In this document: piece by piece, positions 1,082 through 3,709 of the stretch
Layout: the number at the start of each line of letters is the position of its first letter
Position numbering within the stretch: the first letter of the stretch is position 1
Source of the DNA: a virus
Direction: 5' to 3' (one strand)
Length of the DNA stretch: 32,268 nucleotides
IMG/VR virus record: IMGVR_UViG_3300027869_000013
Span: 1-32,268 of that record
Notes under the pieces: model-generated
Databases searched by the model: none
The model's input: the letters and a program-made list of their open reading frames with translations, nothing else
What the model was told of the DNA's origin: nothing
Translations under genes and position numbers: made by a program

Positions 1082-1303
1082 TTATCTCTTTTTATGGTTG
1101 ATGCCCTTTTTCGGGGTGGCGCGGGTTACTGGATGTGACTTAATAAGTTTATCCAAAACCGCATCGAATCTGGCTTTTGACACCTTGACCTTGGATTTTT
1201 CCTCTGTTTTTGCGTGTTTTCCTTCCATTTCCACAGTCATCCACAGGTCTAGCCCCTTGCACATAAATCGGGGCAATGCTCGAATCAGGGGATCGGAGGG
1301 CAA
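1082..1303 (-). CDS. Small basic protein, hypothetical
   Basis: 73 residues from a TTG at 1303; internal ATGs at 1264, 1240 and 1228 are alternatives and none has a clear Shine-Dalgarno. The C-terminal two thirds, from about residue 22, is strongly basic and helical (KSKVKVSKARFDAVLDKLIK) with a Lys/Arg-rich end, as in small nucleic-acid-binding phage proteins. A TATAAG box on the same strand at 1325-1330 would start transcription near 1318, just ahead of the TTG, and an operator-like palindrome covers its -35 position. That context suggests a regulated lone gene, possibly a regulator, but this is inference. The opposite-strand frame 1098-1331 is judged a shadow. Confidence 0.45.
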   Translation of the reverse strand: MPSDPLIRALPRFMCKGLDLWMTVEMEGKHAKTEEKSKVKVSKARFDAVLDKLIKSHPVTRATPKKGINHKKR

Positions 1304-1324
1304 CTGGTCGGTACCAGGAGCGGT

Positions 1325-1330
1325 CTTATA
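1325..1330 (-). promoter_or_regulatory. Putative -10 box of leftward promoter
   Basis: TATAAG on the minus strand, placed about 20 bases before the TTG of the 1082-1303 gene. No canonical -35 is present; the -35 position is occupied by the palindrome at 1338-1352, so this may be an activator- or repressor-controlled promoter. Confidence 0.35.
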
Positions 1331-1337
1331 AACCGCA

Positions 1338-1352
1338 GTTCCCGCTAGGAAC
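1338..1352. promoter_or_regulatory. Operator-like palindrome A (GTTCC-CGCTA-GGAAC)
   Basis: Perfect 5-bp inverted repeat around the five-base centre CGCTA. It shares that centre and overall layout with the palindrome at 1456-1472 but differs in arm sequence with matching changes on both sides. It lies at the -35 position of the leftward TATAAG box. Confidence 0.45.
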
Positions 1353-1455
1353 GGTGTTCAACTCACCTGCCCTCCGCACTCCCCTCGCATCACGTTATAC
1401 CACTCAGCACTGACACATTAAAGTGCCCGTTACGCTGACGCGATACAGTGACGCG

Positions 1456-1902: not shown

Positions 1903-1931
1903 AAGGGCCCCGGTTTATGCCGGGGCCTTTT
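1903..1931 (+). terminator. Strong Rho-independent terminator
   Basis: An 8-bp GC stem (GGCCCCGG at 1906-1913 paired with CCGGGGCC at 1920-1927), loop TTTATG, followed on the plus strand by TTTTCTTATTT, with further A-T pairing at the base. It ends the rightward transcript of the 1524 gene. It also lies directly beyond the end of the leftward operon (1937), where the trailing T-run is weaker, so it may stop both. Confidence 0.85.
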
Positions 1932-1936
1932 CTTAT

Positions 1937-2116
1937 TTATCCCTGCGCCCGATCCCTAGCAATGGCAACGCAGGCGTTTAACTGCTCGTCCGTGTGACTC
2001 ACGATTGGTTTGTCGCAGGTCGGACACGGAGTCTCAGGATCAAGGGGTCGGCCATAGAGCGCCCCATCTGGCATCTGAAACCCACTACTAGAAGCAGTTC
2101 CCTGGGATTTTCGCAT
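1937..2116 (-). CDS. Small CPTC-motif protein, last gene of leftward operon
   Basis: 59 residues from ATG 2116, preceded by AAAGG nine bases upstream; a TTG three codons earlier (2125) is less likely. The motif ETPCPTCDKPIV is a single zinc-knuckle half (CxxC), followed by a helix containing one more Cys. Its first 29 bases overlap the 3' end of the exported-protein gene in another frame, so the two are probably translated together. No family is recognised; it resembles other CxxC microproteins of this operon. Confidence 0.6.
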   Translation of the reverse strand: MRKSQGTASSSGFQMPDGALYGRPLDPETPCPTCDKPIVSHTDEQLNACVAIARDRAQG

Positions 2117-3635
2117 ATTTATCAACCTTTATGTTTGTACACGAGTCCGGGTGTCCTGGAACATAGACAAAAACGTTAGTGAATGGCCCCTTGCCGCAAT
2201 CATCTTTCGCCTCTTTCTCCATCTGGGCCTGTGTAGCTGGATTTTGCCAATGGGTAAATTTCTCGAAGTTCGAAAAGCAATAGGGCACTGTGTTTTCTTT
2301 GCAAGCGCTTTTAAGAGGAGTACATTCAGCGGTTGCCAGCCATCCTCCCGGCTCATAGGCGTACGAAGCAGTTATGTTAGGAGTTCCACTGAACGTGGTG
2401 TAATTCTCAGAGTACACATACATCGGTGGCGATGGTGGACTACTGCTAGCCCCTCCTCCTAGGTTCGCCAGACTTTCACTGCATATCACCGTTCCGGTCG
2501 CCGTAGGGGTACATTGATTGGGGTCTCCAAAGAGAAAGTCACAAGCCGAAGCACTGACATCAAACGAGGACACATTCATCGCGCACGTTGGGCACACGGC
2601 CTGCTGTGACTGCGCTCCATACAATCCGCCCGGTAGTTTAACCTGAATCGTGCCGGTATGCACGACTGTGCCCGTGCAGGGATTGGGCGGCGGGCATCCA
2701 TTCACACTCCCGGTCGTAGTCCCCTGGAGATACGTTCCATACACGTTGAAGTGCCACGGATGCCCTGCGGAATCTAACAGGACCGTTCCCCACCTACTGA
2801 CAGAGGACATGGCGAAAGACTTGGCATCGGGAAGGACTGAAGAGACCCACGTGTTCGTGGTGAAATCGTAGTACGAGATGGCGTCATATGTTTGCACAGG
2901 TCGGCCCGATTGATAAGTGGAGAGCGCATACATCGTAGCTCCCAAATTTGGATCGTTCCCTATGTAGCAAGAGACGGCTGTCCCAAAGGGTTGTGCCGGC
3001 AAGACCGTGAATGTCCCGCTGGTGTAGGACGAGTACTGGTATACCTGCCCGTTTTTCACGCCGCACATATTATTCACATCAGCGGCGGAGGCGGAGACCC
3101 ATCCGGCACTGGTATCGATTTGCAGCCATGTGTTGCCTCCGGGCGGGAGGTAGTACATGTTGTTCAAAGAATTGACGAGCACGATTGTGCCATCGTCGCC
3201 CGCCTGAATTTTGGTGCCACATCCTGAGAGCGCGGTAAGCGTTGTCCCATCCCAGTGAAATGGCGCGTAGCCATTGTATTGCGTGCAGAACGTGGAGGCT
3301 TTTAACAGGTACATGTTGTTTTGAGTGACAACGGCGAGCCCTACCCATCCGGACCCCAAAGCGGCAATCTGGCCCCAGCCATGCGTGGATGTGTTGTAGT
3401 AGTAAATGACATTGTTTGACCCCGGCGTCGTCGTTCCATTGGCAGCGCAGGCCAAATACATGTCGTTGCCGAGCGATGGGATATTGCAGACTCCTCCTCC
3501 CGGCAGCTCGTACCAGAGGTTGGTGGAGGAGGCTTTGGCGCTTAGGTCGCTAACGCCCCATACATAGGCTGTTGAATATTGAGCGTTGAGGGTGAGTGGG
3601 AGAAACAAAAACAACAGTGCTACAATCGTTCGCAT
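2088..3635 (-). CDS. Exported, Cys-rich beta-propeller-like (tectonin-like) protein
   Basis: 515 residues from ATG 3635 with GGAGA seven bases upstream. The N-terminus is a textbook Sec signal peptide: MR, a hydrophobic Ile/Leu/Phe core, then cleavage after LNA before Gln19. Residues ~20-315 contain about six irregular repeats of ~45 residues, each with a variant of N-(N/D)-M-Y-x-L (DMYLA, NMYLL, NMYYL, TMYAL), spaced like blades of a tectonin/kelch-type propeller. Residues ~320-515 form a Cys-rich region with a CPTC motif and a Gly/Ser/Pro linker (GGGASSSPPSPP). Propeller proteins of this kind usually bind sugars or proteins at the cell surface. The gene is the penultimate one of the early operon, on the opposite strand to all virion genes, so it is probably not a tail protein but acts on the host envelope or outside the cell: superinfection exclusion, receptor masking or a host-derived moron are candidates. 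The function is inferred only. Confidence 0.8.
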   Translation of the reverse strand: MRTIVALLFLFLPLTLNAQYSTAYVWGVSDLSAKASSTNLWYELPGGGVCNIPSLGNDMYLACAANGTTTPGSNNVIYYYNTSTHGWGQIAALGSGWVGLAVVTQNNMYLLKASTFCTQYNGYAPFHWDGTTLTALSGCGTKIQAGDDGTIVLVNSLNNMYYLPPGGNTWLQIDTSAGWVSASAADVNNMCGVKNGQVYQYSSYTSGTFTVLPAQPFGTAVSCYIGNDPNLGATMYALSTYQSGRPVQTYDAISYYDFTTNTWVSSVLPDAKSFAMSSVSRWGTVLLDSAGHPWHFNVYGTYLQGTTTGSVNGCPPPNPCTGTVVHTGTIQVKLPGGLYGAQSQQAVCPTCAMNVSSFDVSASACDFLFGDPNQCTPTATGTVICSESLANLGGGASSSPPSPPMYVYSENYTTFSGTPNITASYAYEPGGWLATAECTPLKSACKENTVPYCFSNFEKFTHWQNPATQAQMEKEAKDDCGKGPFTNVFVYVPGHPDSCTNIKVDKYAKIPGNCF

Positions 3636-3709
3636 ACGTTCTCTCCTTCGTTGAGTGAATGTTCCGTCCGGGGCGCTACTTTTCTAGGGTCTGCGCTCCG
3701 GATCGTCCT

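What the first reader, a model, noticed from the sequence alone, without database searches (positions are those of the whole stretch)
2088..3635. Phage-encoded, Sec-exported, Cys-rich propeller protein at the end of the early operon
A clear signal peptide plus tectonin-like repeats and a Cys-rich C-terminus is unusual for a phage early gene. It is on the strand opposite to the virion genes, so it is likely to act on the host surface (receptor blocking, superinfection exclusion, surface carbohydrate binding) or be a captured host gene.
Basis: partly seen in the sequence, partly recalled or inferred. Interest (0 to 1): 0.7.

Follow-up and report, generated by a model that had tools for sequence, protein, structure and literature searches.

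The report
Exported cysteine-rich protein of soil phage
A soil phage carries a gene for a protein built to be exported out of the host cytoplasm, probably a disulfide-held surface-binding protein; related phages carry the same kind of export tag on tailspike-type proteins, which would be a surprising way to make phage attachment parts.

Summary
The ORF at 2088-3635 (-) is a real gene: 515 aa, good ribosome-binding site, a clear Sec signal peptide (cleavage after Ala18, mature Gln19) and 19 Cys. It is the next-to-last ORF of the minus-strand early block. The propeller is plausible but not shown: Pfam Tectonin reaches E 0.0015-0.0035, below its cut-off, and the single-sequence AlphaFold model is uninformative (pLDDT 36). 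No homologue was found in the phage, viral, plasmid or genome collections, at the sensitivity used, or in 33 related phage records. Export is well supported; 'acts on the host surface' is inference. The unexpected context is in the relatives. These soil phages carry large Cys-rich proteins with the same kind of signal peptide, mostly on the virion strand. Their N-terminal domain, confidently modelled (pLDDT 91), resembles the virion-anchoring domain of podophage tail proteins and the P22 tailspike. A sister clade has the same domain with no signal peptide and almost no Cys. The second Cys of a Cys pair is in 14/14 signal-peptide members of the domain alignment and 0/6 others. This suggests Sec-exported, oxidised tailspike-type proteins. 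The window gene lacks that anchor; I read it as an exported, probably glycan-binding accessory protein.

The parts
2088..3635 (-). Exported Cys-rich protein, 515 aa, whole ORF
3582..3635 (-). Sec signal peptide, residues 1-18 (MRTIVALLFLFLPLTLNA), predicted cleavage Ala18|Gln19
   Evidence: sequence; score reached by 1 of 918 six-frame starts in the window
2700..3581 (-). Residues 19-312: beta-rich region with 6 or 7 tectonin/kelch-like repeats of about 35-45 aa (putative propeller)
   Evidence: Pfam Tectonin E 0.0015, below cut-off; 83-aa self-repeat, 12/300 shuffles as good
2091..2699 (-). Residues 313-515: Cys-rich C-terminal region (13 Cys), no known family
3640..3648 (-). Ribosome-binding site AAGGAGAGA; its AGGAG core ends 7 nt before the ATG
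1937..2125 (-). Small ORF (62 aa, CPTC motif) overlapping the 3' end; last ORF of the early block
1906..1938 (+). Hairpin GGCCCCGG-TTTATG-CCGGGGCC with T-rich tail on the + strand: terminator-like, between the converging late (+) and early (-) blocks
   Evidence: missed by the pattern scan

Best explanation
The gene makes a Sec-exported, disulfide-stabilised accessory adhesin. Shown by sequence: an intact ORF with a good ribosome-binding site, a signal peptide, 19 Cys in the mature part, and a place at the end of the early block. Inferred: made during infection, it is threaded through Sec, cut after Ala18 and oxidised outside the cytoplasm. Its N-terminal ~290 residues probably fold as a tectonin-like beta-propeller that binds an envelope or surface glycan, and the Cys-rich tail holds it at the envelope or stabilises it. 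Most likely effect, least certain: it covers or occupies the phage's own glycan receptor on the infected cell and its debris, limiting superinfection and loss of progeny. Rough step confidences: export 0.9, propeller 0.65, glycan binding 0.5, receptor masking 0.3.
For: Signal peptide with AxA|Q-type junction, its score reached by only 1 of 918 window starts. All 20 aligned signal-peptide proteins of other soil phages also have Gln at mature +1. 19 Cys in 515 aa (3.7%) against 0-1.2% in TerL and the main head and tail proteins. Tectonin and Kelch_2 sub-threshold matches on different blades. Relatives carry other exported proteins with binding- or sugar-type domains: HpiC1-like/DUF642 (L051 17486-18337, E 2.5e-16), Ig-like (L049 16156-17079, weak), GH123-like (L078 265-2394, weak). 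Precedent for phage-coded exported receptor blockers: T5 Llp (PMC9586334, title and abstract).
Against: No homologue found, so no conservation test of fold or function. The AlphaFold model is uninformative. No lipobox that would tether it to a membrane, and how it would cross an outer membrane is unknown. No glycan-binding evidence. Early timing is inferred from strand and neighbours only; no sigma-70-type promoter was found nearby.
Confidence: 0.35

Rival explanations
1. It is an attachment protein of the virion made by the same unusual route as the relatives' signal-peptide tailspike-type proteins: exported, oxidised, and joined to virions outside the cytoplasm or at lysis.
For: Relatives carry Sec signal peptides on Cys-rich proteins whose N-terminal domain models as a tailspike/tail-fibre anchor (pLDDT 90.7; BFVD matches to phage tail spike and pectate-lyase proteins, top rows E 3e-5 to 1e-4; Z 8-9 to Pan3 and Pam1 podophage tail proteins, about 7.2-7.6 to the P22 head-binding domain). 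Same AxA|Q junction and Cys-richness.
Against: The window protein gives no sequence match to those proteins and shows no anchor domain; it lies on the early strand.
Confidence: 0.22
2. It is a captured host secreted protein, kept for a metabolic or surface role unrelated to adsorption.
For: Looks like a secreted bacterial protein; absent from all related phage records searched; mildly atypical codon usage.
Against: No cellular homologue found (exact-pattern scan only); GC3 0.60 is typical of the phage; several other early genes deviate more in codon usage.
Confidence: 0.2
3. It acts in the periplasm during lysis or on the cell wall, for example binding peptidoglycan or exopolysaccharide as a helper of the endolysin.
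For: A VanY-type endolysin gene lies close by at 227-712; the protein is exported.
Against: The endolysin is on the opposite strand in the late block; no wall-binding or hydrolase domain was found.
Confidence: 0.1

Closest known systems
Tectonin beta-propeller lectins (Pfam PF19193)
   Same: Short beta-rich repeats; one stretch (residues 141-205) matches the profile
   Different: Score 17-18 bits against a cut-off of 30; Cys-rich C-terminal extension; no glycan binding known; blade number unproven
Phage exported receptor blockers (T5 Llp and similar)
   Same: Phage-coded, exported by a signal peptide; proposed envelope action
   Different: Llp is a lipoprotein; this has no lipobox (LNA|Q) and a 515-aa multi-part build; blocking not tested
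Signal-peptide tailspike-type proteins of the related soil phages (this report)
   Same: Sec signal peptide with AxA|Q junction, Cys-rich, beta-rich, same phage lineage
   Different: They carry a tailspike-type anchor domain and lie on the virion strand; the window protein has neither feature
Pantoea stewartii WceF (PMC7949094)
   Same: Exported protein with a resemblance to phage attachment proteins; acts on extracellular glycan
   Different: Bacterial, Tat-exported, trimeric beta-helix enzyme

Membership tests
Tectonin domain (PF19193) | Profile score over the curated cut-off | tested here: not met
   17.3-18.4 bits against 30
Tectonin domain (PF19193) | Tandem repeats closing into a propeller | tested here: inconclusive
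   Repeats suggestive; model pLDDT 35.6
Tectonin domain (PF19193) | Carbohydrate binding | not testable with these tools
   Needs a glycan array or binding assay
Sec-secreted protein, signal peptidase I type | Charged n-region, hydrophobic core, AxA-like cleavage site | tested here: met
   MR-TIVALLFLFLPLTL-NA|Q; score reached by 1 of 918 starts; heuristic, no SignalP
Phage superinfection-exclusion lipoproteins (Llp type) | Lipobox with Cys at mature +1 | tested here: not met
   Mature +1 is Gln19
Phage superinfection-exclusion lipoproteins (Llp type) | Blocks the phage receptor | not testable with these tools
   Needs an adsorption assay
Tailspike/tail fibre with virion anchor | N-terminal anchor domain in the window protein | tested here: not met
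   No phmmer or blastp match to 18 signal-peptide proteins of relatives, anchor-bearing ones included; sequence comparison only
Tailspike/tail fibre with virion anchor | Anchor domain fold in the relatives' signal-peptide proteins | tested here: met
   Model pLDDT 90.7; phage tail spike and tail-machine matches. The fold is a common transthyretin-like one, also seen in carboxypeptidase and pilin domains, so attachment itself is not shown

The most novel reading that the evidence does not exclude
This phage lineage makes attachment proteins outside the cytoplasm: tailspike-type proteins with a virion anchor are exported through Sec, oxidised, and joined to virions in the periplasm or at lysis, and the window gene is an anchorless exported partner of that system.
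Probability: 0.25. Interest if true: 0.85.

Novelty: new variant of a known kind. Interest (0 to 1): 0.55.

Why it matters
Tail fibres and tailspikes are normally thought to be folded in the reducing cytoplasm and fitted there (general knowledge). Signal peptides and Cys on proteins with a tailspike-type anchor suggest a different assembly route in an uncultured group of soil phages, and a ready source of disulfide-held, exported glycan-binding proteins. The window gene adds an anchorless exported protein on the early strand, directly testable as an adsorption modifier.

Tried and rejected
Homologue searches for the protein: viral contigs (three pattern scans), genome contigs, phages (only a chance-level Streptococcus phage match, E=5), plasmids, PDB sequences, NCBIfam, 33 records of related phages: nothing usable. 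PHROG portal match E=0.38 rejected as chance. Single-sequence AlphaFold rejected as uninformative. Tectonin in a Planctomycetes MAG and its relatives, reached through a weak terminase match: nothing rang anywhere, controls included, so uninformative. The signal peptide as an artefact of a wrong start: rejected for the relatives' anchor family because several members have only one possible start. Literature searches found no paper on signal-peptide tail fibres or phage tectonins: searches returned papers that by title and abstract are on other topics, and searches returned none (open-access library only; only PMC7949094 and PMC10975493 were opened, at selected passages). No Rfam match near the gene.

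Full report
What is there. The window is a 32,268-base linear virus record. The minus strand from about 12.9 kb down to 2 kb carries early-type genes: ERF, exonuclease, replication O-like, a methyltransferase and an HNH nuclease. The plus strand carries TerL, portal, MCP and tail genes, and a VanY-type endolysin at 227-712. The two blocks converge near 1.9 kb, where a plus-strand hairpin with a T-rich tail sits at 1906-1938. The finding, 2088-3635 (-), is the next-to-last ORF of the early block; a 62-codon ORF overlaps its 3' end. Several terminase relatives have records of 41-47 kb, so several kilobases between the end and the start of the window are probably missing.

The protein. 515 aa with AAGGAGAGA upstream. 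Residues 1-18 form a signal peptide; by a hydropathy/AxA rule its score is reached by only 1 of 918 six-frame starts, presumably this one. No SignalP was available. 19 Cys lie in the mature part. The composition is rich in Thr, Gly, Ser, Asn and Tyr. Pfam Tectonin matches residues 141-205 at E 0.0035, or 0.0015 without the signal peptide and tail, below the curated cut-off; Kelch_2 matches an earlier blade at E about 0.05. A two-blade self-repeat is equalled by 12 of 300 shuffles. The AlphaFold model without homologues is useless (pLDDT 35.6). So a propeller is the best guess, not a result.

Relatives of the gene. None was found. The three viral-contig scans and the genome scan needed exact 8-residue matches, so distant relatives could be missed. 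None of 33 records of terminase relatives holds it by a translated search; many of those records are fragments. The virion genes are about 40-100% identical in the nine relatives compared, while most lysis and early genes, this one included, had no match there.

The unexpected context. A scan of nine related phage records for signal-peptide ORFs showed large Cys-rich proteins with clear signal peptides, mostly on the virion strand: one group between portal and MCP, one downstream of the tail genes. The mature N-terminal domain of the second group (alignment A2) was used to fetch 41 viral loci. These fall into 20 with a signal peptide and 21 without; the two sets were assigned by reading the translated N-termini. 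Median Cys is 2.36% of the mature protein against 0 (Mann-Whitney p 3e-8); a Cys-pair motif is in 15 of 20 against 0 of 21. These p-values treat loci as independent; the tree shows one split between the two sets, support 100/98, so this is one evolutionary contrast, kept across a diverse clade. In the 20-sequence domain alignment the second Cys is in 14 of 14 signal-peptide members and 0 of 6 others. Several members have only one possible start, so the signal peptide there is not a start-codon artefact. The domain of the group between portal and MCP is homologous to it (hhalign probability 98.6, E 9e-16).

What that domain is. Modelled with its alignment it reaches pLDDT 90.7. Against viral models the top rows (E 3e-5 to 1e-4) include proteins named phage tail spike and pectate lyase superfamily. 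Against solved structures no match passes E 0.001, but the second look gives Z 9.2 and 8.2 to Pan3 and Pam1 podophage tail proteins and about 7.2-7.6 to the P22 tailspike head-binding domain. The fold is transthyretin-like and also common in carboxypeptidase D and pilins (Z 7-8), so the fold alone does not prove virion attachment; the phage context and the tail fibre PHROG matches, one on a signal-peptide protein and one on a signal-less one, point the same way. Disulfide geometry in the model was not measured.

How it most likely works. Export is well supported by the signal peptide, the Cys content and the lineage. The rest is inference: an exported, disulfide-held, probably glycan-binding propeller that acts at the envelope and most likely reduces re-adsorption of phage to infected cells and debris. 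The main rival is a virion or lysis-stage attachment role through the same export route as the relatives' tailspike-type proteins. The window protein lacks their anchor domain by sequence. A captured host gene remains possible; codon usage is mildly atypical but less so than in several other early genes. The host is unknown; a diderm soil bacterium is assumed.

Literature. No paper on signal-peptide tail fibres or phage tectonins was found in the open-access library: searches returned papers that by title and abstract are on other subjects, and searches returned none. T5 Llp (PMC9586334, seen as title and abstract) is the nearest functional precedent; WceF of Pantoea (PMC7949094) is an exported bacterial protein with a tailspike-like fold.

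Verdict. Observation partly confirmed (export signal and Cys confirmed, propeller unproven); interpretation partly supported. Most of the interest lies in the lineage-wide export of tailspike-type proteins, which this gene led to.

Noticed in passing
L061-L078, L080, L081 (gene starts between about 3900 and 4001 in each locus): Signal-peptide, Cys-rich proteins with a tailspike-type anchor domain; a sister clade (L079, L082-L101) has the domain without signal peptide and with 0-3 Cys.
   Followed up: yes
L041 8124-9197, L046 16912-18183, L003 5985-10642: Variable cassette of signal-peptide anchor-type genes between portal and MCP in relatives; the window has none there (portal ends 22344, next gene starts 22546).
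   Followed up: partly
L024 3495-4862: Two adjacent signal-peptide ORFs (269 aa with 12 Cys, and 179 aa) upstream of TerL on the same strand: exported proteins outside the tail module.
   Followed up: no
window 1295-1377 (+): tRNA-Ile with anticodon TAT (ARAGORN), near the end of the late block; it may serve rare ATA codons.
   Followed up: no
window 32268 to 1: The record probably lacks several kilobases of tail genes, the place where relatives keep their signal-peptide tailspike-type genes.
   Followed up: partly
L051 17486-18337: Exported protein with an HpiC1-like/DUF642 domain (E 2.5e-16) in a related phage.
   Followed up: partly
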